Made by a program: the position numbers and the translations under genes. This document shows, piece by piece, positions 3,622-34,811 of a DNA stretch of 49,473 bases (the first letter of the stretch is position 1; each line of letters begins with the position of its first letter). Location of the stretch: assembly GCA_903935195.1 (NCBI GenBank), contig CAIZQW010000154.1:1-49473 (forward strand). The letters run 5' to 3'. Origin of the DNA: an uncultured bacterium. GTDB lineage: Bacteria > Verrucomicrobiota > Kiritimatiellia > RFP12 > UBA1067. The notes beneath the pieces were generated by a model. It saw only the letters and a list, made by a program, of their open reading frames with translations. It searched no databases and had not been told where the DNA came from.

Positions 3622-5270
3622 TAATCCCCGGCCTCTGCTACAAAGTCCGTAACTTCAGGGCGATCCAGTTCAGCATACGAGCTCCAGATCAGCTCGGCAT
3701 TCAGGGACTCTGAATAGGAGACGAAGTTCGCCAAGGTGTAAGCTTCAGGTGAATAGTTAAATTCACTGCCACAGGCATACTCACAGATGCACGGCACTTT
3801 GCCGTTACATTTGCAGGCGCAGAGGCAACGTGTAGGCTGCTCAGCCACCGCGTTCGCTTCGTCACGTGCTACCGTGGCGGGCGTTTGAGGCGCGGGGGTT
3901 GCAGGTGCAGGAGCCGCTACGAAGTCCTGGTTTTGCACCACAGGTTGTGCGGGCTGGTTGTAGATGATGACCTGCGGTGCAGGTTGCTGGATCACAACGG
4001 TCTGGGGCTCCTCATACAGGTAATAGGTACGATAGACCGGGTAGGGATTGAAGATATACGAGAAGCCGCCATACCAGCTTGAACGCCAGCCCCCATAGTA
4101 GACATGGGAGTGCTGCCAGCCATCGTGATAGTACCATGAGGAGGTAGAGTAATAGGGGCGATAGGTGTAGACCGGATAGGATGAACGGGTTGAAACCGAG
4201 AATGCGAAATGGTCATTTCCCCACGTGGTGGTGACTGTGCGGGCCGGATAGGGGGCGTAGACATTCGCCACATAGAACGGAGCAATCAAGGGCGCGGCCA
4301 TTGTAAAAGCAAAGGCGTCCCAGAACGCGTCGCGCCTCGAATAACAGGTCACAGGCCGGTAGGGTTGATGATAGCTCGGATAGTGATGGGAATAGTATCT
4401 ACGTGTCTCGGGTTCGTGGTGAGCCGTACGGACAGGGGTGGGTGTGCGTTGTACCGCGAGTTCGTATTGGGGACGCTCCTGCCGAGAAGAGATGGCCTTT
4501 TGCGCAGGGGTCCTGGGCTGCGGTGCGCTCTCATTGAAGAGGAAGGGAGATGCTTCCTTCGCCTGTGTGCGCGAAGGGGTCCGCGTAGGAGCTGTTATTT
4601 GAACACGTTGCGAATCATTCGGTCGCGCGGTCCGCTCTCTGTTGGAAAGCTCGGTGGGACGCTGGGAGGTTCTCTCGCGTTTGGGTTCTGCTTGCGTCAC
4701 GGGTTGCAGATCGCTTGGCTGACGTACCCGTGTGGTACGGCCTCGTGTTGTCACCTCGGGTTGTGCAGGAGCAGGTTCGGCGACGGTTTCAGGAGTCGTA
4801 GGTTTATGCTCCCGCTGGACCCGTGAACGCGGTTGCTCCGTGTCACGCGCCGTCTCGACGCGAACGGGTTCTGTCGTGACTGTTGTTTTACGTTCGCGCT
4901 GGGGGGCTGTGAACGGGGAGGTCGCTGGTGTCTCATCCCGTGTTGAGGTCTTCTGCTGAACAGCTTCCGATGTATTTTTCTCAGTACGTCCTTTGTAGGA
5001 CTCGCCACGATATACAGGCGTGGAAGGCGTGTAGGTGCGAGGTGTCGCAGGTGCAACAAAGGTCGAAGCAGGCGTTGGCGTGCTGGGGGTTCGTACGGAG
5101 TATCCAGGGGTAGCAGTACGGGTGGGGGCTGGAGTTGCCTCTGTGGTGACGCCACTTGAAACTCCTGAGGAGTCAGGTGTCCCCGCTTTGCTACCGTCGC
5201 TGTTGCGTTTCGCAGCAACATGCAGCGTCAGTGTGCCAGTGAGTAACACGATGGTCAGGGTCCTATTCAT
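3621..5270 (-). CDS. Secreted low-complexity protein, Thr/Pro/Arg-rich then Tyr-rich, with a Cys cluster
   Basis: Function not recognised. The 549-residue product starts with a signal peptide (MNRTLTIVLLTGTLTLHVAA). ATG 5270 is preferred because AAGGAG stands seven bases before it. Residues of about 25-300 are dominated by Thr, Pro, Ser, Arg and Gln and look disordered. About 300-440 is rich in Tyr, Trp and His (for example YYSTSSWYYHDGWQHSHVYY) with one hydrophobic stretch near FAFTMAAPLIAPFYVANVYA. Then comes a Pro/Gln-rich linker and a cluster of seven cysteines (CLCACKCNGKVPCICEYAC), followed by an acidic C-terminus. It could be a surface or matrix protein. It is co-translated with the Nudix gene. 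Confidence 0.7.
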   Translation of the reverse strand: MNRTLTIVLLTGTLTLHVAAKRNSDGSKAGTPDSSGVSSGVTTEATPAPTRTATPGYSVRTPSTPTPASTFVAPATPRTYTPSTPVYRGESYKGRTEKNTSEAVQQKTSTRDETPATSPFTAPQRERKTTVTTEPVRVETARDTEQPRSRVQREHKPTTPETVAEPAPAQPEVTTRGRTTRVRQPSDLQPVTQAEPKRERTSQRPTELSNRERTARPNDSQRVQITAPTRTPSRTQAKEASPFLFNESAPQPRTPAQKAISSRQERPQYELAVQRTPTPVRTAHHEPETRRYYSHHYPSYHQPYRPVTCYSRRDAFWDAFAFTMAAPLIAPFYVANVYAPYPARTVTTTWGNDHFAFSVSTRSSYPVYTYRPYYSTSSWYYHDGWQHSHVYYGGWRSSWYGGFSYIFNPYPVYRTYYLYEEPQTVVIQQPAPQVIIYNQPAQPVVQNQDFVAAPAPATPAPQTPATVARDEANAVAEQPTRCLCACKCNGKVPCICEYACGSEFNYSPEAYTLANFVSYSESLNAELIWSSYAELDRPEVTDFVAEAGD

Positions 5271-5306
5271 AACATGCTCCTTTCTAAGAAGCGTTTGATA
5301 CATAAT

Positions 5307-5335
5307 ACAGTACGTGATTTTAGCGGTATCGTCAA
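5307..5335 (-). promoter_or_regulatory. Sigma-70 type promoter for the secreted low-complexity protein operon
   Basis: On the minus strand TTGACG (5335-5330) and TACTGT (5312-5307) are separated by 17 bases. The predicted start site falls about 30 bases before ATG 5270. The -35 box matches consensus at five of six positions, the -10 box less well. Confidence 0.55.
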
Positions 5336-5447
5336 GATCAGCACAGTAGAACTGTATCTATCCCAATAAACGTTTGAAGGGTTCAATTATTGCCTTGCAC
5401 AGAAGCGGGGTTTATGGGATTGTTTAAACACACTTAAGGTTCAGCTG

Positions 5448-7280
5448 ATGAATGTTTTATTAATTACTCCGCCTTTGTTGCAATTGAACACGCTCTACCC
5501 CGCCACACCTCTCTTGGCAGGCTATCTTGCTGGGCGAGGCGACTCGGTTGTTCAGGTGGACCTTTCGCTGGAGTTGGCGCTGAAGCTCTTCTCTCGCAAG
5601 GGGTTAGAGCTTGTTGTGGAAGCGTGTCACAGCAAGTCGCGCAAGACGCCGAAGGTGAAGAGATTTCTCGCACGGGCAACAGATTACCTCCGAACCATTG
5701 ACTCGGCAGTCTCTTTTCTGCAAGGCAAGGCGCCTGAGCTGGCTGAACGTATCGCGCAACGCTCCTTTTTGCCGGAGGGTCCGCGCCTGGAGTCCATGAC
5801 CTCGGGGTCGGGCCTCTCGTCTGAAGAGGCATGGGCTGTTTTGACCCAGGGACTGGATCTCGCGGAGCAGGCAGCCTTTCTGGCCTCCCTCTATCTTGAT
5901 GATCTTGCAGATGTCATTCAAGAGGGCGTGGATCCTGATTTCGGTTTTTCACGTTATGCTGAACGTTTAGGTGTCGCCATGCCGACCTTGACGCCCTTGC
6001 TAAAAAAGCTTCGGGCTCCGTCTACGTTAGTGGGAAGGCTGATTGATGAGCTGACCGCTGAGGCGCTCGCGAAACACAAGCCCGCTGTCGTCGGGCTGAC
6101 CGTCCCTTTTCCCGGAACGGTCATGGGTGCTTTCCGGATTGCGCAACAGGTCCGTCGCCTCCTTCCGAAAACACGGATTGTGATGGGCGGTGGCTATGTG
6201 AATACGGAGTTGCGGAATCTGACGGATGAACGTCTCTTCCAGTTCGTGGATGACCTCTGTTTTGATGAGGGATTCTCGGCGTGGGATCAGCTTATCTCAG
6301 GGTCTGCACCCGACGTGAAGCACAGAGCGAGTTTGCAGGGCAGACGCCAGATGCCTCGGCCCTGTTATGACGGGATTGATTTTTCGCGCTATATCAACGT
6401 GATGGAGACCACCAATCCGATGCATCGGATCTGGTCGTATGGCAAATGGCTGAAGCTACAGGTCGCCAATGGCTGCTATTGGCATCGCTGCGCCTTCTGT
6501 GATGTGGGGCTTGATTATATTGGTCGCTATCAGCCACCTAAGGTAGAGGAGCTGGTTGAGCAGATGGCGCGTATGGTTCGTGAGACAGGGCAAACCGGTT
6601 TTCATTTTACAGATGAAGCTCTGGCGCCGGCTTTCTTGCGACAGCTTAGCGAAGCATTGATTCAGCGTCAGTTGAAGGTGACCTGGTGGGGTAACATCCG
6701 TTTCGAAAAAGCCTTCACACCTGAGCTGGCGAACGTGATGGCGCAGGCAGGATGTATTGCTGTCACGGGCGGACTCGAATGCGCAAACGACCGCCTCCTC
6801 GCTTTGATGAACAAGGGCATCACCTGCGCAGGTGCGGCGAAGGTCTGCCAAGCTTTTTCACGCGCGGGAATCCTTGTTCACGCCTATCTCATGTATGGCT
6901 TCCCGACGCAGACACGCCAGGAGATTGTGGATGCATTGGAGTATGTGCGGGGCATTTTTGAAAAGGACTACATACAATCTGCTTATTGGCATCGCTTTGC
7001 CTTGACGATTCATAGTCCGATTGCCAAAGAGCCGAAGGCGTTTGGCGTGAAGCTGGTGGGTGGACACCCTTTGCCGGCGGCGCATGGGTGCAAGGTGTTG
7101 ACACGGGAGGCACTGGAGGCGCGATTCAAGGGGCCTCGGTGCTTTGCGTTGAACGAGATCCCCTTCACGGTGTCACGGGCTCCTGATTATGATCGCCTGG
7201 GACAAGGTCTTCGAGCCGCGCTCTATAATTACATGCTCGGTCTCGGTTTCGAGGTGCCTGTTCACGCATGGTTCAGGTAA
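5448..7280 (+). CDS. B12-binding-domain radical SAM protein
   Basis: The protein has 610 residues. The N-terminus (MNVLLITPPLLQLNTLYPAT, then LLAGYLAGRGDSVVQVDLSL) and the segment VVGLTVPFPGTVMGAFRIAQ to IVMGGGYVNTEL form a cobalamin-binding-like Rossmann domain spread over about residues 1-290. The radical SAM core follows with cysteines 343, 348 and 351 (NGCYWHRCAFCD), a CX4CX2C spacing instead of the usual CX3CX2C. Later segments (FHFTDEALAP, VTGGLECANDRLLALMNKGI, HAYLMYGFPTQTRQEIVDAL) fit the TIM-barrel core. The substrate is unknown. It faces away from the secreted-protein gene and runs into the histidine kinase gene, leaving a single base between their stops. Confidence 0.8.
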   Translation: MNVLLITPPLLQLNTLYPATPLLAGYLAGRGDSVVQVDLSLELALKLFSRKGLELVVEACHSKSRKTPKVKRFLARATDYLRTIDSAVSFLQGKAPELAERIAQRSFLPEGPRLESMTSGSGLSSEEAWAVLTQGLDLAEQAAFLASLYLDDLADVIQEGVDPDFGFSRYAERLGVAMPTLTPLLKKLRAPSTLVGRLIDELTAEALAKHKPAVVGLTVPFPGTVMGAFRIAQQVRRLLPKTRIVMGGGYVNTELRNLTDERLFQFVDDLCFDEGFSAWDQLISGSAPDVKHRASLQGRRQMPRPCYDGIDFSRYINVMETTNPMHRIWSYGKWLKLQVANGCYWHRCAFCDVGLDYIGRYQPPKVEELVEQMARMVRETGQTGFHFTDEALAPAFLRQLSEALIQRQLKVTWWGNIRFEKAFTPELANVMAQAGCIAVTGGLECANDRLLALMNKGITCAGAAKVCQAFSRAGILVHAYLMYGFPTQTRQEIVDALEYVRGIFEKDYIQSAYWHRFALTIHSPIAKEPKAFGVKLVGGHPLPAAHGCKVLTREALEARFKGPRCFALNEIPFTVSRAPDYDRLGQGLRAALYNYMLGLGFEVPVHAWFR

Positions 7281-7281
7281 A

Positions 7282-8880
7282 CTAGCGCAACTTTCCTCTG
7301 GAGGCCAATGAGAGGGTCTTGGCGAGGTCGGAGGCTGTCCACGGCAGGGTGAAGTAGAAGATCGCATGTTGGCGGTAAAATTCAAGATCAGAGCGGGAGA
7401 GGGTTGCCTCGCCAAAGATAATGATCGGAAGGCGTTTTGTCTTTTGGTTTTCTCGGAGTTGCATGAGAAACTCTCGGATGTCAAACGTGGTACTCCGGCC
7501 ATCCAGTAATAGCAGGGATGGGGGTTGCCTCAGACAGGCTTCGCACAACGTGGTGGGTTTTTCAAAAAAGGCTACGTCGTAGCCCAGCTTCTGAATATGC
7601 GTTGCTAAAAACGTTTGAGCCGCTTTTTCTGGAACGCAACTCATGATGCGAGGCGGTTGCGCTAAGGGAATCTCGACATAGACGGCGGTTCCGCAGGTTG
7701 TTCCAGGGACCGGACTTTCAAAGGTGATGGTTCCCCCATGAAGCTCGACGATCTCACGGGAGATGGCTAAGCCGAGTCCGGTACCAGCGACATGGTCGCC
7801 TGCGCGGACGAATCGTTGCGTCAACTTCGGGAGCAGTTCTGGTGGCACGCCAGTTCCGGTATCACAGACCGCGAGGCGTGCCGTGGATGTTTTGCCCATG
7901 GATTGCTCAAGGGTAATCGAGATCCTGCCCTTCTCGGGGGTAAACTTGATGGCATTGCCCACGATATTCAGAACCACACGTTCCAGTTTCTGAGTATCGC
8001 AATGACAAAAGAGTTCTGGCGGATCGAGGATGAGTTGAAGGTCAATGTGCTTAGCTTCGGCTTGGATCTGTACGGGGTTGACCCCCTCGCGAATAACAGC
8101 GCTGAGGGGCACAACCTGCTTGGTCAGGACAAGGCTCTTATTCTCGATTTGGCTGATATCTAAGATATCATTGATTGTCGCTAAAAGTCTTTGGCAGTCA
8201 GACTGCAAACGCTCAAGATAGCTAATAGCCTTTTCAGGCATGGTTCCTACCACACCCCGGATCATGTTGTTGACCGCATAGACCATGGAGGTCAAAGGGG
8301 TGCGGAGCTCATGAGAGACATTCGAGACGAACTCAAGGCGCGCACGGTCATGGGCTTGGAGACGTTCGTTGGCATTCTGCAAGGCGCAGAGCGCATTGTG
8401 ACGCACGGTCATGTCGCGAATGAAGAAGCAAAGTTGGCCTTTGGTGTCTAGGTCCACCTTGTTGATCGCAATTTCAGCAGGGAAGGATGTGTTGTCTGCT
8501 CGCTTGCAATTGGCCTCGACGAGCGTATATTTTTGGTCCGCCAAATTGGCCTGGACGGTCGTGATCAACGAGGGGGTTGCACCCGAAATCAACCGAACGA
8601 TCGACTGGTCGAGCAGTTCGAGAGAGGAGAGAAGAAAAAATTCCGAAGCGCGATGGTTGCACTCCAGAATTTTTCCCTCAAGGTCCGTAATGAAGACCGC
8701 ATCATACACGCTCTCAAGTAACTTAAAAAAGGGCGTGCTGCGTTCGTTTGAATGAAGACGCCAAACACTCCGAACCCTCAACCTTGAAACCTTTGTTTGC
8801 GTTGGCTTTGTCTCAATAACATTTGGAATGATATCGAGACACAAGGTTCGGGAATTCGGAAGATTGGCGTCCGTGGACAT
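7282..8880 (-). CDS. PAS-domain hybrid sensor histidine kinase with degenerate receiver
   Basis: The 532-residue protein has no clear membrane segment. A PAS domain (about residues 50-165, LESVYDAVFITDLEGKILEC) is followed by HisKA with phosphoacceptor His190 (SNVSHELRTPLTS), an HATPase domain with N box (NIVGNAIKFTP), G1 (DTGTGVPPE) and G2 (GTGLGLAIS), and a C-terminal receiver-like domain (about 410-530). That last domain keeps an Asp (LLLLDGRST) but lacks the N-terminal acidic pair and has Leu where the conserved Lys belongs (YFTLPWT). Its ATG overlaps the stop of the RRM gene (TAATG). The first 45 residues include a stretch encoded by a GGTTTCAAGGTTGAGGGTTC-type repeat. The cognate regulator is not visible. 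Confidence 0.85.
   Translation of the reverse strand: MSTDANLPNSRTLCLDIIPNVIETKPTQTKVSRLRVRSVWRLHSNERSTPFFKLLESVYDAVFITDLEGKILECNHRASEFFLLSSLELLDQSIVRLISGATPSLITTVQANLADQKYTLVEANCKRADNTSFPAEIAINKVDLDTKGQLCFFIRDMTVRHNALCALQNANERLQAHDRARLEFVSNVSHELRTPLTSMVYAVNNMIRGVVGTMPEKAISYLERLQSDCQRLLATINDILDISQIENKSLVLTKQVVPLSAVIREGVNPVQIQAEAKHIDLQLILDPPELFCHCDTQKLERVVLNIVGNAIKFTPEKGRISITLEQSMGKTSTARLAVCDTGTGVPPELLPKLTQRFVRAGDHVAGTGLGLAISREIVELHGGTITFESPVPGTTCGTAVYVEIPLAQPPRIMSCVPEKAAQTFLATHIQKLGYDVAFFEKPTTLCEACLRQPPSLLLLDGRSTTFDIREFLMQLRENQKTKRLPIIIFGEATLSRSDLEFYRQHAIFYFTLPWTASDLAKTLSLASRGKLR
8770..8792. repeat. Short-period repeat inside the 5' end of the kinase gene
   Basis: CCGAACCCTCAACCTTGAAA (from about 8770) is built from 7-8-base units of the AACCCTGA kind and resembles CCCTGAACCCTGAAACC at 26001-26017. 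It lies in frame in the kinase gene and encodes part of the basic, apparently unstructured N-terminus before the PAS domain. The match is short and could be coincidence. Confidence 0.35.
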
Positions 8881-9308
8881 TATTCGTGTGACTTATTCTT
8901 AGCTTCGTTGATACGGAGCTTGCGTCCGAAACTGTCCTTGTCGTGAAGCGACTTAATGGCGGCTTCAGCTTCAGGACGGTTCGGCATCTCAACGAAACCG
9001 TATCCCTTAGACTTACTGTTGAAACGGTTGGTGATAATGCGAGCGGATTTGACTTCGCCAAAGCGTTCAAACTCCTTGCGCATCTGGGCTTCCGTCATGT
9101 CGTAGCTTAGGTTGCCGACATAGATTTCGACGCACGAGCCGTCTCCGTAGCTTTCGCCTGAACCTCTGTTGCTCCTGCGACGACTGCCAGAGCCTGCTTT
9201 CGCGATGAGGATGCCGAGGAGGATGCCGATGAGGCCTGTTGCGGCCAAGATTCCGGCCGAGATAGGGTCTTTGACCATGTCGGTCAATGTGGTGATGAGC
9301 TGATTCAT
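8880..9308 (-). CDS. Membrane-anchored RRM RNA-binding protein
   Basis: The protein has about 142 residues. Residues 15-40 (ISAGILAATGLIGILLGILI) form one clear membrane helix. A basic Gly/Ser/Arg linker follows, then a single RRM domain (about 60-138) with RNP2 (IYVGNL) and RNP1 (KGYGFVEM). Cytosolic one-domain RRM proteins are common in cyanobacteria and several other phyla; a membrane-anchored one is unusual. Two starts are possible: ATG 9308, given here, or TTG 9314, which is better spaced from AAGGA. The gene lies between rpoD (44-49 bases upstream) and the kinase gene, with which it overlaps by one base. RNA targets are unknown. Confidence 0.8.
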   Translation of the reverse strand: MNQLITTLTDMVKDPISAGILAATGLIGILLGILIAKAGSGSRRRSNRGSGESYGDGSCVEIYVGNLSYDMTEAQMRKEFERFGEVKSARIITNRFNSKSKGYGFVEMPNRPEAEAAIKSLHDKDSFGRKLRINEAKNKSHE

Positions 9309-26135: not shown

Positions 26136-28328
26136 ATGAACACGACACAACTCACGTTTCTCATCTCGGGCCGCTTGATCGCGGTGGTCACCATCAGCAT
26201 GTTCCTGACGGGGGTCCTCGCTAAGCCTTTGACCAGTTCTAATACAAAGAATCAGGGTGTCAAGACAGCTTCACTTTCGTCATCCGCTACGAAGGTTAAG
26301 GGTGTCCCTGATGTTTGGCCCCCCGCAGACGAAAAGCGCTATGCTGGCGCGAGACTGGAGGGGGGCTTCACCTCCGAATTGAAATCACTCAAAGATGTCA
26401 TTACCCGTGCGCTGCCCAAGGTTGGTGGCAAGGCTGTGGCAGATTTTGAGAAAGTGGGAAATGTAGCCGCCGAGGCTGAGGCCAAGGCTGCAGCCGCGCA
26501 GAGGGAGTTGGGCCAGATCGCCGCCGCCAAGGGAATGATCGACCACGCCAAAGGCAAGTGGATCGGCGGTGCGAATAAAAACATCGCCAGTGCAAAGGAA
26601 GCGTTGAAAAATGCCAAAACTGCCTCTGAGCGCGCGGCCGCCGAGAAGAGCCTCGCCGATGCGCAGAAAAACCTCGCCGACGGCGAAGCCGCCCTCAAGG
26701 AACGCACGGCGCTCTATGAACAAGCCAAGGCTAAGGAGCCCGCCCTCAAGCGCGCCCATGAAGAGGCCCAGGCCGCACTGGCTCAGGCCAAGACGCGCGA
26801 GGCCGATACGGCCAAGGGCCTCATGGGGTCCATGGGTTCCTTTCTCACCAGTGATGCCCTTGACGGGAAGCTTGCCAAGGCCTATATACTCACCTCGGCC
26901 ACACCGAAAGGACTCGCCGAGTTCGGCGAGCTCAGCTCTGAAAAGGCCGCATTGGTGAAGCAACTGCTTGCCAACGAGGCCCTGATGAAGGATATGGTCG
27001 CGGCCGGGGGGGCCAGCTTCGGGAAATACGGCCAGGCGATGGAGATTTTCAGCACTATCCTCAAGATCAGTCCGCAGGCGAAGGAGGGGGTGTTGTACCG
27101 TCTCGCGCTAGCCACCAGTCTTGAGCACGCCAAACCGATCGGTCAGTCAAACTGTGCCAACATCCCTAACCAAGACAGCAATGTGAATCCCATCAAACGC
27201 TATCTGCATTACGAGACAGCATACTTGAATAATGAATTGGATCCCGCCTTCAAGAGCCTCACCGCGTGGGAGATGCGGCATGTTGTAAACTGTGACGCAC
27301 CGGATGAGGTTCTTAGTTGGGGACGTGAAATGCTCCGGACTTACCGTCCGGACTACATGTTGGGCGACTACGGCTGGCGTTATGTTTCCAGCGTGAAGGG
27401 GGAGGTGCCGTATGGGTCGAAAAATGTCCATCTCGATGACCCGGCCAATCATAAATACCAGAACATCATCCGTAATGGTGGGGTCTGTGGACGCCGCGCG
27501 TTTTACGGACGTTTCATCCTTCGCTCCTTCGGGATACCCACCTGGGGCGTCACTCAACAGGCTCACGCCGCCCTCAGTCACTGGACACCCAAAGGCTGGG
27601 TGGTCAACCTCGGCGCCGGCTTCCAGCACAGCTGGTGGGACAAGGACGATGTGCGTCTCAGCGGCAACCAGTTTCTTCTCGAAACCAAAGCCCGCGCCCA
27701 TGAAAAGGAATACAAGAAAGTTCAGCGCGCGGAAATGGTCAGCTGCATTCTTGGCGAACCCGCCTACAACGAACGCTGTAATGTAGAGGGTGGCTTCTGG
27801 AGCAATGTGGCGCTTCAACAGTCCCGCACGCTCGCAGCAAGCGCTGTCGAACTCGGAGCGCTAGGGCAGGAACTCGGCGAGGCGAACGAGAAAAATCAGA
27901 AACTCCAGTCGGAAGCCGCCGCCAAGGCTGATCGTGAAGTCCTGGAAAAAGACGGTCAGATCATCATCCCGGCGGTCGCACACGAAAATGCCACTGGCAA
28001 AGCGGCCACGATGCGCTCGTTTGAGGGCGGTATGCAAATACACGCCTTCGGCGGTTTCAAAACAGAATATAAAATCAAAGCCCCACGGACAGGGGATTAT
28101 CTGCTGACGGTCAAGGTCGCCACGGCTCAGACTGGTCAGAAATTCCTCTTGGGTACGAACGGCGGGCAGACAGTCGAACAACCCGTGCCCTACACGATTG
28201 GCGTTTGGAAAAATTCCGATGGCATCCCGGTCAAACTCAAGAATGGAATGAATACCCTGCAGTTCGAAATCGCCCCGGGTAGCCGGGGTGTGACCATCAA
28301 AAGCTTCACGTTCACACCGGTGAAATAA
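26136..28328 (+). CDS. Secreted coiled-coil protein with transglutaminase-like domain
   Basis: The 730-residue protein starts with a signal peptide or anchor (about 9-30, SGRLIAVVTISMFLTGVLA). Residues 85-230 are an Ala/Lys/Glu-rich coiled coil. A transglutaminase-like core lies at about 350-500: Cys451 in NGGVCGRRAFYGRFILRSFG, His477 in TQQAHAALSHWTPKGW, and Asn491 where Asp is usual. A second coiled coil follows at about 565-600, then a beta-sandwich at about 630-730 (TEYKIKAPRTGDYLLTVKVA) like carbohydrate-binding modules. Enzymatic activity, whether protease or cross-linking, is uncertain. Codon use is richer in GCC and CTC than that of neighbouring genes. It is followed by an esterase gene 37 bases on. 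Confidence 0.7.
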   Translation: MNTTQLTFLISGRLIAVVTISMFLTGVLAKPLTSSNTKNQGVKTASLSSSATKVKGVPDVWPPADEKRYAGARLEGGFTSELKSLKDVITRALPKVGGKAVADFEKVGNVAAEAEAKAAAAQRELGQIAAAKGMIDHAKGKWIGGANKNIASAKEALKNAKTASERAAAEKSLADAQKNLADGEAALKERTALYEQAKAKEPALKRAHEEAQAALAQAKTREADTAKGLMGSMGSFLTSDALDGKLAKAYILTSATPKGLAEFGELSSEKAALVKQLLANEALMKDMVAAGGASFGKYGQAMEIFSTILKISPQAKEGVLYRLALATSLEHAKPIGQSNCANIPNQDSNVNPIKRYLHYETAYLNNELDPAFKSLTAWEMRHVVNCDAPDEVLSWGREMLRTYRPDYMLGDYGWRYVSSVKGEVPYGSKNVHLDDPANHKYQNIIRNGGVCGRRAFYGRFILRSFGIPTWGVTQQAHAALSHWTPKGWVVNLGAGFQHSWWDKDDVRLSGNQFLLETKARAHEKEYKKVQRAEMVSCILGEPAYNERCNVEGGFWSNVALQQSRTLAASAVELGALGQELGEANEKNQKLQSEAAAKADREVLEKDGQIIIPAVAHENATGKAATMRSFEGGMQIHAFGGFKTEYKIKAPRTGDYLLTVKVATAQTGQKFLLGTNGGQTVEQPVPYTIGVWKNSDGIPVKLKNGMNTLQFEIAPGSRGVTIKSFTFTPVK

Positions 28329-29963: not shown

Positions 29964-30006
29964 GGGGCAGGCATCGCGAAGGCGGAAAGCCTGCCCCTTT
30001 GTTATT
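29964..30006 (+). terminator. Rho-independent terminator after the SGNH hydrolase
   Basis: GGGGCAGGC (29964-29972) and GCCTGCCCC (29989-29997) form a perfect 9-bp stem followed by TTTGTTATT. Its tail overlaps the end of the convergent permease gene. Confidence 0.8.
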
Positions 30007-31249
30007 CATGCCGCAGGGCGATGAGGGGATCGAGGCGTGCGGCCTTCCAGGCGGGATAGGTGCCGAAGGTGAGTCCGGTGATGACGGAAACCGCCAGTGA
30101 GACAAGCAGGCTTTCGGGCGTAATGATAGCCTGAATCGTCAGGTCGCCATTCCACTTGGCGAGGGCCTCTGCACCATAGGCCGTCAAGATACCCACACCG
30201 ATCCCCAGCGCGCCTCCAAAGAACGTCAACACAATCGATTCCGCTAAAAATTGGAGTAGGATGTCACGCCGCGTGGCACCTAGTGCTCGCCGGATGCCGA
30301 TTTCACGGGTACGCTCAAAGATATTGGCCAGCATGATGTTCATGATGCCAATGCCGCCGACCAGCAAGGAGATCGCGGCGATCGAGGTCATCACGAGGGT
30401 AAAGATCCGCTGTGTCTTCTCGGCAGCCCGCATCAGTTCATAAGGAACCTGCAACTCATAGTCCACATTGACATGGGAGGTCGAGAGATAGCTCTTCAAA
30501 CGTGCGACCAACTCGGGAACATGTTCAACCTCTTTAACCCGGATATAGAGGTAATTATAAGGGACAGAAGAGGACTTGCCCCAGATGGCTTCGGCCATAG
30601 CTATCGGAACATAGATGACATTGTTGATGCTGTGCGCGCCACCGATGCGCCCTTGTCCATCCCCTTTCAACAGACCGATGACACGAAAGGAATAGCGGCC
30701 GATCCCGATCTCTTGATTTAAGGGGTCGCGATGGCCAAAGAGCTTGCGCGCCGCATCGATGCCGAGGTAGCAGGAGGGTAAAAAGATCCCATTGTTTTTC
30801 CCGGGAAAGGGCTTGCTGCGCGAATCGGCGAGTGTGCAGTTGATGACATCAAAGAGAGCCCGTTCGGTGGAGAGGACAAAGATATCCGTCCGGTTTTGTC
30901 CGCTGTAAACCCCGGCGTCAAACTCCTGGATGGGAACGATCTGTTCAATATGGTTGAACGTTGTGGAGATGTGGTTATAGTCTTTTTGCGTGATCCCATA
31001 GGTGAAAATCCTGCGCTTGTCCATCTTGGGATCAGCCAAGGTCTCGGGCTTGACACTTTTAAGAATGATATTGTTGATGCCCTGCGCCTTGATCTGATCA
31101 ATGATGCCACGCTTGCCCCCTTCGCTGATCGCGAGCATGGCTACGACGGCCGCAATGCCGAGAACAATACCCAACGTCGCCAGCAACGCACGGATGATGT
31201 GGCGCGAGAGGCTGGCATAGACGGTTTTGAATAGTTCAAGGATGGACAT
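30002..31249 (-). CDS. MacB/FtsX-type ABC transporter permease
   Basis: The 415-residue protein has one N-terminal membrane helix (ALLATLGIVLGIAAVVAMLA), a large periplasmic domain (about 45-275) and three C-terminal helices in an FtsX domain (about 285-410: ISLLVGGIGIMNIMLANIFE, RTREIGIRRALGATRRDILL, FLAESIVLTFFGGALGIGVG). This is the layout of MacB without its ATPase. MacB-type proteins move substrates within the periplasm using mechanical force rather than through the inner membrane. It is the last gene of a four-gene operon and starts 18 bases after the ATPase stop. Confidence 0.88.
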   Translation of the reverse strand: MSILELFKTVYASLSRHIIRALLATLGIVLGIAAVVAMLAISEGGKRGIIDQIKAQGINNIILKSVKPETLADPKMDKRRIFTYGITQKDYNHISTTFNHIEQIVPIQEFDAGVYSGQNRTDIFVLSTERALFDVINCTLADSRSKPFPGKNNGIFLPSCYLGIDAARKLFGHRDPLNQEIGIGRYSFRVIGLLKGDGQGRIGGAHSINNVIYVPIAMAEAIWGKSSSVPYNYLYIRVKEVEHVPELVARLKSYLSTSHVNVDYELQVPYELMRAAEKTQRIFTLVMTSIAAISLLVGGIGIMNIMLANIFERTREIGIRRALGATRRDILLQFLAESIVLTFFGGALGIGVGILTAYGAEALAKWNGDLTIQAIITPESLLVSLAVSVITGLTFGTYPAWKAARLDPLIALRHE

Positions 31250-31267
31250 GGTCGTGGGAGGGTTTCT

Positions 31268-31960
31268 TTAAGCGGGGTGGGAGGGGAACTTTTCGTTTTT
31301 AAAGCTGACGTTTCCGTCATGGATGGTGATGCGATGGGTGGCGTAGGCTTCGTAAGACGGGTTATGCGTCACGAGGATGATGGTCTTTCCTGCGCGGTGT
31401 AAGTCGGAAAAGATTTGCATGACCTCCAAACCTGTTTGCTCGTCGAGATTGCCCGTCGGTTCGTCAGCAAGGATGACGGGCGGTTCGTTCGCAAGGGCAC
31501 GTGCAATCGCAACACGTTGGCACTGGCCACCAGAGAGCTGTGTCGGTTTTGAGTCGTAACGCCCTTGGAGACCCAGTTGATCGAGGAGTGCCCGCCCTCT
31601 TGCCTTCATGGTGGAGTGGCGATCCCGTGCATACTGCATGGGCAGACAGACATTTTCTAAGCAGGTGAGGTGAGAGAGCAGGTTAAAGGATTGGAAGACC
31701 ATGCCGATCGTCTGGTTGCGAACGTGCGACGTTTCATCATCGGAAAGGGAGGAGACCTCCTTGCCGTTCAGCTTGTAGGCACCTGTCGTGGGGTGTACGA
31801 GCAAGCCAAAGAGGTTGAGAAGTGTTGATTTGCCGGAGCCTGAGGGTCCCATGACCGTCAGGAAAGCCCCCTGAGGGATAACTAAAGAAGTGGAACGAAG
31901 CGCGTCAATGGTTACGCCTCCAGCATGATACTGCTTGGAAAGTTTGAGGAGTTCGATCAT
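31268..31960 (-). CDS. ABC transporter ATPase (MacB/LolD type)
   Basis: The 230-residue ATPase has Walker A GPSGSGKST, Q-loop VFQSFNLLSHLTCLENV, signature LSGGQCQRVAIARAL, Walker B VILADEPTGNLD and H-loop ILVTHNPSYEAY. The sequence between Walker A and the Q-loop is typical of the LolD/MacB group that pairs with FtsX-fold permeases. It starts two bases after the adaptor stop and is followed by the permease, so the subunits are made together. Confidence 0.93.
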   Translation of the reverse strand: MIELLKLSKQYHAGGVTIDALRSTSLVIPQGAFLTVMGPSGSGKSTLLNLFGLLVHPTTGAYKLNGKEVSSLSDDETSHVRNQTIGMVFQSFNLLSHLTCLENVCLPMQYARDRHSTMKARGRALLDQLGLQGRYDSKPTQLSGGQCQRVAIARALANEPPVILADEPTGNLDEQTGLEVMQIFSDLHRAGKTIILVTHNPSYEAYATHRITIHDGNVSFKNEKFPSHPA

Positions 31961-31962
31961 AA

Positions 31963-33507
31963 CTACAGGGAAGTCCGTATGAGGAGGAGGCGATCACCTT
32001 CGGCTATTCCTTCTGTGAGTTCGATGAAGTCTGCTGAGAAACGTCCAGTCTTGACCTTTCGCTCCTCGGATGACTCCTTGCCCGTCTCGATCTTGACATA
32101 GGTGGTTCCTTCGCGCGTATAAACAGCTTCAACAGGGACATACAGGGTGTCTTTGATGGTCTCGACAATAATTTCAAGCTGGACGGACATGCCCGAGGTG
32201 ACGCGCGGATCAGAATTGTCAGTTGAAATCTTGGTCGCATAGACCTTAGGGCTTTGTGGATCCCAATGGCTGATGGATGTTGCAGCAGCGGCGATCTCCT
32301 CAATGGCCCCCTTGAGGAGGAGATCCGGGATTGCCTTGGCCTTGATGTGGACCGGCTGGCCGACCTTGACACGGGAGCGGAACTCTTCCGGGATGCTTGT
32401 CTGGACACGGAAACTTGACATGTCTGGGATATAGGCGATGGTTTGTCCAATCCAAACTTCCTTGCCTTCGCGAAGCGGACCCCGTGAATCATCGTAATAA
32501 GACGACTCCCCCGGTTGTCCATGGTAAAGTGTTCCCGTGACAGGAGAACGAATATCAAGTTTCTTCAGATCGGCTTGAATTTTTTTGAGCTCAAACGCCA
32601 GTTCCTCGATGGACCTCTGCTCCATCTCCAGTTCGATCATCTTTTTGGTCAGACGTGTCTCATTGTTCACGATACCCCGTTGAACTGCAATAGTGTTACG
32701 TTTGACAGTTTCACGTGAGGACTGGAGCTTTTCCGGATGCTCATAGCGCTTAAAGATGCGCAACTCATGAAAGGCGGAATCAACATCCTGTTTAGTGCTA
32801 TCCACTTTTATCACGGCTTCGTTGACTTTGCTTTCTGCCTCCATTTGCTTATATTCATCCATGGCGTAGGCATCGGAGAACGCCTTGCGGGCCAGCGTCA
32901 GATCCGTATCAGCCTTTTCCATGGCATTGATCTTTGCTTCGACGCTTAATTGGAGCTCTCGTTTTTTCTTTGGAGCATCTTCTTTGTCGTACTTGTTGAA
33001 GGTGTCGGCAGAGGTCTTCAGCGTATCCAGCGCAGTTTTTAAGTCATTGATGTTGTCCGCCCGGATCATCTCGATGTCCTTCTCTGCCATGGCGATGCTG
33101 CGCTCACCGGTCTGAATTTTTTGCAGCATATCGGTTTCCATTTTCTTGAAATACTCATCGGAGATACGAAAGATGACATCGTTTGACTTGACCGCCGAAT
33201 GGGCCGGGGTCACGAAGGTTAGTTTTAATTGATCGCCCCCTCGCATACCTTCAAACGCGATGCTATGGTTTTTGATGGCGCCGAGTTGTCCGTCGGACCG
33301 GAAGACCACGGAGAAGTCCCCGCGCTTGACCGTAAAGAAACGGTTGGAGGCTTGCGTCTTATTGGCAGAAGCCCCCTTATCGCATCCGGTAACGAACACG
33401 AGTGAAATAATGCTCGTTGAAGCGACAGCGTAAACCATTCGGCGAATGCCGAAAGCGAAGCGGTAATAACGCACTAATGAACTAATGAACTTCTCTCTCC
33501 TGCTCAT
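31963..33507 (-). CDS. Lipoprotein periplasmic adaptor (HlyD/MacA-like)
   Basis: The 514-residue protein has a lipoprotein signal ending SLVFVTGC, with Cys at residue 42. A long helical hairpin (about 130-310), a lipoyl-type domain (LKKLDIRSPVTGTLYHGQPG) and beta-barrel segments (GQPVHIKAKAIPDLLLKGAI; VTSGMSVQLEIIVETI) match membrane-fusion adaptors. It would bridge the permease to an outer-membrane channel. ATG 33507 overlaps the secretin stop (ATGA) and has AGAAGG upstream. The unusually long 24-residue basic region before Met24 is encoded by repeat-like DNA (33436-33492), so Met24 may be the original start. Confidence 0.82.
   Translation of the reverse strand: MSRREKFISSLVRYYRFAFGIRRMVYAVASTSIISLVFVTGCDKGASANKTQASNRFFTVKRGDFSVVFRSDGQLGAIKNHSIAFEGMRGGDQLKLTFVTPAHSAVKSNDVIFRISDEYFKKMETDMLQKIQTGERSIAMAEKDIEMIRADNINDLKTALDTLKTSADTFNKYDKEDAPKKKRELQLSVEAKINAMEKADTDLTLARKAFSDAYAMDEYKQMEAESKVNEAVIKVDSTKQDVDSAFHELRIFKRYEHPEKLQSSRETVKRNTIAVQRGIVNNETRLTKKMIELEMEQRSIEELAFELKKIQADLKKLDIRSPVTGTLYHGQPGESSYYDDSRGPLREGKEVWIGQTIAYIPDMSSFRVQTSIPEEFRSRVKVGQPVHIKAKAIPDLLLKGAIEEIAAAATSISHWDPQSPKVYATKISTDNSDPRVTSGMSVQLEIIVETIKDTLYVPVEAVYTREGTTYVKIETGKESSEERKVKTGRFSADFIELTEGIAEGDRLLLIRTSL
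33436..33492. repeat. Short-period repeat within the 5' end of the adaptor gene
   Basis: ACTAATGAACTAATGAAC (33473-33490) is an 8-base tandem unit in two copies. Next to it TTCGGC-GAAT-GCCGAA (33438-33453) is a perfect 6-bp hairpin. Together they encode the extra basic residues before the lipoprotein signal. It resembles the other short-period elements in period rather than in sequence. Confidence 0.45.
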
Positions 33508-34811
33508 TCCGCGACCTTCTTAAGTGCTTGGGGACCCTGGGGCGTTCCAAGGGATTGCCCTTTATCATAGATATGACCTTCGATTTCCTGCATCTTTAAC
33601 CGCAGTTGCTCCGATATCTTTCCGGCCTGGGCCTTGTCACGGAGTGGGGCGGTCTCAGGGGTGATCAAATAGGGGGTCATGAAGATGACCAGTTGAGTGG
33701 TGATCGAGCGCGTATTTTTGCCGGTGAAAAACCAGCCAACAAGGGGGATGCGCCACAGGTAGGGGACATGCGTGTCTGTCTCCCGCTCCTCTTTGCGGAG
33801 GAGTCCGCCCAGGATGATCATCTCGCCAGATTTTGCTTCCAGTTCAGTGGAGGCTGAACGCAGGGCGATGTAAGGTGCCTTGCTGACAAGGTCATAACGG
33901 GCGATGTTTGAAAATTCTGGATTGATCCGCAGGCGGATCCGTTCGCCCGAAATCATAACAGGACGGACGATGAGTTTGACCCCGACGTTTTCAAAACGTG
34001 TTGATTTGCTGATACTGCTTCCTGTGGTGGTCTCCGTCCCGATCGGAACCTTTTCGCCTGTTGTGATGTTGCCGTCAGCCCCACGACGAATGACAATATT
34101 TGGCGAAGTGAGGAGTCGTGCGCAATCCTTGGTCTGAAGATAGTTAATCAGGCCCCAGATCTTAAAACTGTCATTACCGCCAAAGAGCCACGTGCGTCCA
34201 CTTGAGCCACCTCCTGCTGAAGCCTCCACGTCGTTGACGCTTGTTCCAATGGCATCGTAGCCCGGAAGGATCAAGTTGCTGAAGACTCTTCGGAGCTGCT
34301 CTGAATCGCCCATCTTTGTGAAGCCGATCTCGACCTCCTTGTTCAGGGCGTCACTCAATTCAAACTCCACGATTCGCGCCTCTACGAGGATTTGAGGCAC
34401 GGGCTGATCAGCATCTGCGACGATCTTTTTGATCTGCTCAATACGTTCAGCGGTGTCAGAGATGACCAGCAGATCATCCTCCCCGCTGCAGGCGGCGGTC
34501 CCGGCCGGCGAGAGAAAGCTCTCGACAAGGCGCCGAAGCGTCTCTGCGCTGACAAACTGGCAACGGACGGTATGCAGGATGAATTTTTCTTGTTGGTCAG
34601 CGAGAAACTTTTCAAGGAGTTGCGAATAGTTTGCTTCGCTTTTGGCCGCAGCGGAGGGGGCGTTAGATGAAACAGTTGCTGAAACGGCTTCAGTCAAATT
34701 TGTGATTTTGTCCTCCTCTTTGTCTTCTTTGTCCTGCGCCAACAGAAGCGGGGTGTAGAGGGAAAGTGTAAAAAGGAGTGATCGCCACAGAAGAGAAGAG
34801 GACGGTTTCAT
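33504..34811 (-). CDS. Secretin-family outer-membrane channel
   Basis: The 435-residue protein starts with a signal peptide (SLLWRSLLFTLSLYTPLLLA). One N1-type ring domain (about 75-145: VSAETLRRLVESFL to DLLVISDTAERIEQIKKIVA) precedes the secretin domain (about 145-405), with ILVEARIVEFELS, TRFENVGVKLIVRPVMI and the C-terminal signature IPLVGWFFTGKNTRSITTQL followed by VIFMTPYLI. It is short compared with GspD and PilQ. It is the first gene of the operon with adaptor, ATPase and permease. No other type II, type III or pilus gene is nearby. An SD (AGGAA) is seen six bases before the ATG. Confidence 0.85.
   Translation of the reverse strand: MKPSSSLLWRSLLFTLSLYTPLLLAQDKEDKEEDKITNLTEAVSATVSSNAPSAAAKSEANYSQLLEKFLADQQEKFILHTVRCQFVSAETLRRLVESFLSPAGTAACSGEDDLLVISDTAERIEQIKKIVADADQPVPQILVEARIVEFELSDALNKEVEIGFTKMGDSEQLRRVFSNLILPGYDAIGTSVNDVEASAGGGSSGRTWLFGGNDSFKIWGLINYLQTKDCARLLTSPNIVIRRGADGNITTGEKVPIGTETTTGSSISKSTRFENVGVKLIVRPVMISGERIRLRINPEFSNIARYDLVSKAPYIALRSASTELEAKSGEMIILGGLLRKEERETDTHVPYLWRIPLVGWFFTGKNTRSITTQLVIFMTPYLITPETAPLRDKAQAGKISEQLRLKMQEIEGHIYDKGQSLGTPQGPQALKKVAE

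What the first reader, a model, noticed from the sequence alone, without database searches (positions are those of the whole stretch)
30002..34811. Secretin in one operon with a MacAB-like ABC exporter: possible TolC-independent export system
Four tightly packed genes (overlap, 2-base and 18-base gaps) encode a short secretin, a lipoprotein HlyD/MacA-like adaptor, a MacB/LolD-type ATPase and an FtsX/MacB permease. Known MacAB pumps use TolC, whereas secretins serve type II and type III secretion, type IV pili and phage export. No pilus or T2SS gene is nearby. The gene order suggests that the secretin is the outer-membrane gate of an ABC-driven periplasmic exporter. I do not recall this arrangement as a characterised system. 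Coupling of the parts is inference from operon structure.
Basis: partly seen in the sequence, partly recalled or inferred. Interest (0 to 1): 0.8.

Follow-up and report, generated by a model that had tools for sequence, protein, structure and literature searches.

The report
Secretin replaces TolC in MacAB-type exporter
A four-gene unit widespread in one bacterial phylum appears to be an ATP-driven export pump that has traded its usual exit pipe (TolC) for a secretin, the wide gate otherwise known from type II and III secretion, pili and filamentous phage, a combination I could not find described.

Summary
The four genes are real and placed as stated. They encode a short secretin, a MacA-like lipoprotein adaptor, a MacB-type ATPase and a MacB_PCD+FtsX permease. 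The arrangement is conserved. Of 67 adaptors of this type read in the phylum, 65 lie directly behind a secretin; one of the other two is cut by a contig end, and the other keeps the same secretin elsewhere in its genome. Where genomes have separated the ABC pair from the secretin-adaptor pair (8 of 15 close relatives), the permease is still present. A parallel TolC-adaptor-ATPase-permease operon exists in the phylum, and in this genome. The two types never mix: secretins, adaptors and permeases of the secretin type each form one group in trees. All 27 TolC-paired adaptors have the shorter hairpin tip with an RLS-like motif; none of the 64 secretin-paired adaptors aligned has it, and all carry an 8-residue longer polar tip. 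T2SS-, T4P- and Tad-type loci carry their own, different secretins. Best reading: a MacAB-like, mechanotransmission-driven exporter of periplasmic substrates that uses a dedicated secretin as outer-membrane gate. Physical coupling, substrate and direction are inferred. I found no paper describing it. New variant of a known kind.

The parts
33504..34811 (-). Short secretin (435 aa): signal peptide about residues 1-25, linker, one Secretin_N domain, secretin core
33663..34139 (-). Secretin core domain (PF00263, residues 225-383)
34392..34571 (-). Only N domain found (Secretin_N, residues 81-140, below Pfam's cut-off); no N0/N1/N2 array as in GspD
31963..33507 (-). MacA/HlyD-like periplasmic adaptor (514 aa), lipobox Cys42 with Asp at +2, long coiled-coil hairpin (about residues 117-315), lipoyl and beta-barrel parts
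32833..32901 (-). Hairpin tip of the adaptor (about residues 203-225): lacks the RLS-like TolC-docking motif and is 8 residues longer than in TolC-paired paralogues
31268..31960 (-). MacB/LolD-type ABC ATPase (230 aa) with Walker A GPSGSGKST, signature LSGGQ, Walker B ILADEPTGNLD, H-loop VTH
30002..31249 (-). MacB-like permease (415 aa): MacB_PCD periplasmic core plus FtsX domain, not fused to the ATPase

Best explanation
A MacAB-type (type VII ABC) exporter that uses a dedicated short secretin, not TolC, as its outer-membrane gate. Proposed working: substrates already in the periplasm enter the chamber between permease and adaptor; ATP hydrolysis drives the periplasmic domains of the permease by mechanotransmission (established for MacB, PMC5985334); the adaptor's hairpin tube leads to the periplasmic end of the secretin, whose single N domain is the likely docking ring; the secretin opens and releases the substrate. 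Shown here by sequence: gene content, order, co-inheritance, separate lineage from TolC-paired paralogues, loss of the TolC-docking tip, independence from T2SS/T4P/Tad secretins. Inferred: physical coupling, direction (export) and the mechanical cycle. A secretin pore is wider than TolC, so bulky or folded substrates are plausible, but no conserved cargo gene marks the substrate.
For: Four-gene order across the phylum. Secretin directly upstream in 65 of 67 adaptors of this type read; secretin-adaptor spacing -44 to +76 nt in 50 loci. All 15 relatives with the secretin+adaptor keep the orthologous permease (one a contig-edge fragment), and in 8 of them it lies at a second locus. The one adaptor without a neighbouring secretin (L169) keeps a secretin of this type elsewhere in its genome, 321 bits against 155 for the other match. 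Parallel TolC-adaptor-ATPase-permease operons, never mixed. Monophyly of secretins, permeases and adaptors of this type. Tip dichotomy 64 v 27. Distances of the four proteins track each other, r = 0.84-0.96 (relatedness alone gives much of this). No conserved fifth gene.
Against: No physical or functional data; structure predictions were too poor to model the contact. TolC homologues exist in all 30 genomes with this system that were tested. The ABC pair is split off in several genera, so coexpression is not universal. RLS is not strictly required for TolC binding in all known adaptors (PMC4446572). Export as the direction is assumed from MacB.
Confidence: 0.77

Rival explanations
1. The ABC-adaptor-secretin unit is one machine but not an exporter: MacB-like mechanotransmission is used to assemble, gate or maintain the secretin, or to extract and place lipids or lipoproteins, as other type VII ABC systems (LolCDE, FtsEX, YbbAP) do.
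For: Type VII ABC proteins do varied envelope work (PMC12646458, PMC5985334); no cargo gene is linked.
Against: Adaptor with a long hairpin and an outer-membrane channel in the TolC position is the exporter architecture; the secretin occupies exactly the gene position of TolC in the sister operons.
Confidence: 0.12
2. An ordinary MacAB pump that docks on a TolC homologue in trans; the neighbouring secretin serves another function.
For: TolC homologues occur in the same genomes.
Against: TolC-paired adaptors in the same phylum are a separate lineage with their own TolC genes; secretin-paired adaptors lack the TolC-docking tip in 64 of 64 cases; secretin and adaptor stay together even where the ABC genes moved away.
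Confidence: 0.06
3. The secretin is the outer-membrane part of a T2SS, type IV pilus or Tad system whose other genes lie elsewhere, and its place beside the ABC genes is incidental.
For: The core is most like GspD by profile.
Against: It lacks the GspD N0-N1-N2 array, fails every curated cut-off, forms its own clade, and these genomes have other secretins, several in T2SS/T4P/Tad-like loci. The association with the adaptor is phylum-wide.
Confidence: 0.02

Closest known systems
MacAB-TolC tripartite pump (type VII ABC exporter)
   Same: MacA-like adaptor, MacB-type ATPase, MacB_PCD+FtsX permease, outer-membrane channel gene; same gene order as the TolC-type operon of the same phylum
   Different: Secretin instead of TolC; RLS-like TolC-docking tip missing and tip 8 residues longer; ATPase and permease are separate proteins (also true of the TolC-type operons here)
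Type II secretion system secretin GspD
   Same: Secretin core and the preceding N domain; GspD structures are the best matches in the PDB
   Different: No N0-N1-N2 array, no GspC/E/F/G partners, below the GspD cut-off, separate clade from the other secretins sampled
Aat lipoprotein secretion system (PMC7943197)
   Same: Known example of a MacB-like ABC exporter rebuilt for another substrate class, accepting it from the periplasm
   Different: Aat keeps a TolC-type channel (AatA)
Filamentous phage pIV, Tad RcpA, PilQ secretins
   Same: Secretins with reduced or different N domains
   Different: None is encoded with an ABC exporter and HlyD/MacA-type adaptor as far as I found

Membership tests
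MacAB-TolC tripartite pumps | MacB-type ABC ATPase plus MacB_PCD/FtsX permease | tested here: met
MacAB-TolC tripartite pumps | MacA/HlyD-family adaptor with hairpin, anchored at the inner membrane | tested here: met
   Pfam/NCBIfam and MacA in the PDB; lipobox, or an N-terminal hydrophobic anchor in G040/G045; anchoring is predicted only
MacAB-TolC tripartite pumps | TolC-family outer-membrane factor as partner | tested here: not met
   A secretin takes its place in 65 of 67 adaptors of this type read; partnership itself is judged from gene neighbourhood and co-inheritance only
MacAB-TolC tripartite pumps | RLS-type TolC-docking motif at the hairpin tip | tested here: not met
   0 of 64 secretin-paired adaptors; the TolC-type tip form is in 27 of 27 TolC-paired ones
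MacAB-TolC tripartite pumps | ATP-driven export of periplasmic substrates | not testable with these tools
   needs experiment
Type II secretion system | GspD with N0-N1-N2-N3 and secretin core | tested here: not met
   171.9 bits against a 351 cut-off; only the C-terminal part matches
Type II secretion system | GspC/E/F/G/L/M genes with the secretin | tested here: not met
   no such neighbour in the window scans or as a conserved neighbour of these loci
Type IV pilus / Tad secretins | PilQ or RcpA family membership and pilus genes nearby | tested here: not met
   below the PilQ cut-off; separate clade; Tad- and T4P-like loci with own secretins in the same genome
Secretin superfamily | PF00263 core with the VPxLxxIPxxGxxF motif | tested here: met
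   E = 2e-36; conserved P350, P356, G359, F362

The most novel reading that the evidence does not exclude
A separate class of one-ATPase secretion machine, in which a MacB-like bellows and an adaptor tube push folded or bulky periplasmic proteins out through a secretin: a minimal four-gene alternative to the type II secretion system.
Probability: 0.35. Interest if true: 0.9.

Novelty: new variant of a known kind. Interest (0 to 1): 0.78.

Why it matters
Tripartite ABC exporters and secretin machines are treated as separate worlds. A conserved hybrid would show that the adaptor can be re-aimed from TolC to a secretin, give a natural set of paired paralogues (TolC-type and secretin-type, sometimes in one genome) for working out what decides adaptor-channel specificity, and offer a four-gene secretion system in a phylum whose secretion is poorly understood.

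Tried and rejected
Structure prediction: one adaptor job on the single sequence (pLDDT 43, only the coiled coil modelled) and one secretin job on two 90%-identical rows (pLDDT 29); neither is usable, so no fold search was run. TolC absence as an argument: tested and rejected, all 30 genomes have TolC-family genes. Conserved LRxFKxY motif of the hairpin as a secretin-specific signature: only in 24 of 65 by the strict pattern, so not used. Conserved cysteines as a secretin-specific link: the permease Cys160 is also in 12 of 20 TolC-type permeases, rejected. Conserved neighbours to name the substrate: none shared by more than 6 loci. Plasmid search found only distant adaptors. Promoter/terminator scans at or below chance level.

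Full report
The four genes are real and arranged as described. On the minus strand lie a 435-aa secretin (33504-34811), a 514-aa adaptor overlapping it by 4 bases (31963-33507), a 230-aa ABC ATPase after 2 bases (31268-31960) and a 415-aa permease after 18 bases (30002-31249). Pfam and NCBIfam assign Secretin, HlyD/RND-adaptor, ABC_tran and MacB_PCD+FtsX; the ATPase and the permease match the two halves of MacB. The adaptor carries a lipobox with Asp after the cysteine. In two relatives of another family (G040, G045) the lipobox is replaced by a hydrophobic N-terminal stretch, which suggests inner-membrane anchoring by either means (inference). The neighbours scanned are housekeeping genes, with no T2SS or pilus gene.

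The arrangement is conserved. In 60 relatives, the orthologous adaptor (clear score gap) occurs in 15 genomes, always behind an orthologous secretin. In seven of these, window included, all four genes stand in the same order, in families f1 and f5 at 23-92% adaptor identity. In the other eight the permease is at a second locus, in seven of them seen paired with the ATPase (the eighth is a contig-edge fragment): separated in position, kept in the genome. A profile search of 388 genomes of the phylum found about 70 adaptors of this type (365 bits or more, apart from two matches at 304 and 263 bits that also proved to sit behind a secretin); the remaining matches are at 265 bits or less. Of 52 of these read with their surroundings, 50 have the secretin directly upstream; 45 show the full order, and 5 are truncated or lack one detected gene, none in another order. 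One (L144) is cut by the contig end. The single true exception, L169 in G178, has another gene there, but that genome keeps a secretin of this type on another contig (321 bits; the other secretin match of the genome scores 155). The system is in 24 of 288 sampled genomes of the window's class and 57 of 149 of a second class, mainly families f42, f48, f60 and f67.

A second, parallel operon type makes the case. Many genomes of the phylum, this one included (contig C424, L064), carry OMF(TolC)-adaptor-ATPase-permease. The lower-scoring adaptors of the phylum search that were read with flanks (L174, L176-L182) all have TolC in the place of the secretin, and so do those of the close relatives whose upstream gene could be read. 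The labels never mix: adaptors of the secretin type (64) and TolC type (27) fall on two sides of one branch (SH-aLRT 99), permeases likewise, with the split-off ABC permeases on the secretin side (98), and the 63 secretins form one clade (100/99) apart from 24 other secretins of the phylum. Some of the 27 adaptors called TolC type come from loci where the upstream gene was not resolved by my ORF picker; they were placed there by sequence. L174 is a TolC-paired locus whose permease scores close to the secretin type.

The hairpin tip follows the partner. In all 27 TolC-type adaptors the tip has the short form with L-x5/6-[LIVS]-[STN], which lines up with the leucine and serine of the RLS motif that binds TolC (motif and role: PMC4446572; my alignment to AcrA is from memory). 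In all 64 secretin-paired adaptors the motif is missing and the tip is 8 residues longer, polar and variable. RLS is not absolutely required in all known TolC-binding adaptors, so this is strong but not conclusive.

The secretin is not a stray part of another machine. It matches GspD only over the N domain next to the core and the core itself, fails every curated cut-off, and this genome has four other secretin genes, among them a GspD-like one, one near a T2SSE-family ATPase and one in a Tad-like locus. Two genomes assembled as one contig have 13 and 14 secretin matches, in T2SS-, pilus- and Tad-like loci among others, besides this one (locus types by inspection and family scores).

[quoted passage not shown] By homology the ATPase and permease here do the same, and the adaptor delivers to a secretin. 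Shown: composition, order, co-inheritance, loss of the TolC tip. Inferred: contact between adaptor and secretin, export direction, substrate. No gene is a conserved neighbour of the unit (largest cluster 6 loci), so it is probably a general exporter with unlinked cargo. TolC-family genes are present in all 30 tested genomes with the system, so TolC use in trans is made unlikely, not excluded. Structure predictions were of too low confidence to use.

Known systems: I found no paper describing a secretin with a MacAB-type exporter; the library is limited to open-licence PubMed Central papers. Phyla outside this one were not searched except through plasmids and the single genome-collection scan, which returned one near relative and one distant adaptor. 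A record matching relative G001 in contig length is labelled Akkermansia muciniphila (CAMBQV010000032.1), a label I would not rely on; I take the phylum to be Verrucomicrobiota in the wide GTDB sense, by inference.

Noticed in passing
G000 contig C424 (L064:14477-19873): The same genome carries the parallel TolC-adaptor-ATPase-permease operon, a built-in control for the secretin-type operon.
   Followed up: yes
L174 (G063:C338) 3659-9239: TolC-paired operon whose permease scores close to the secretin type (483 bits); a possible sister that kept TolC, useful for dating the channel swap.
   Followed up: partly
L049, L051-L054, L057, upstream of the secretin: A conserved ~277-aa gene with a cysteine-rich middle part and what looks like a PTS EIIA-like end sits 5' of the secretin in four genera that have split off the ABC pair; not tested against families.
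   Followed up: no
L086, L087, L088: In one genus the split-off ATPase-permease pair follows two conserved large genes and an ABC-type ATPase, resembling a GldG/DUF4340-type ABC cluster by eye.
   Followed up: no
L203:3795-7144, L204:4501-7631, L207:4812-7865: Tandem pairs of ~480-570-aa secretin-like genes with no obvious secretion machinery beside them.
   Followed up: no
L184:3934-6455: A GspD split into two adjacent genes (N0-N2 part and secretin part) in what looks like a T2SS locus.
   Followed up: partly
L066:7968-11300 (own genome, contig C315): A 1110-aa secretin-domain protein next to coaE-rho, without pilus or T2SS neighbours on its short contig.
   Followed up: no
record CAMBQV010000032.1 (L044): A 91%-identical relative is deposited as Akkermansia muciniphila; that label looks doubtful.
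   Followed up: no
window 26136-28328 (+): 730-aa protein with an N-terminal hydrophobic stretch and no Pfam or NCBIfam match, just downstream of rpoN.
   Followed up: no
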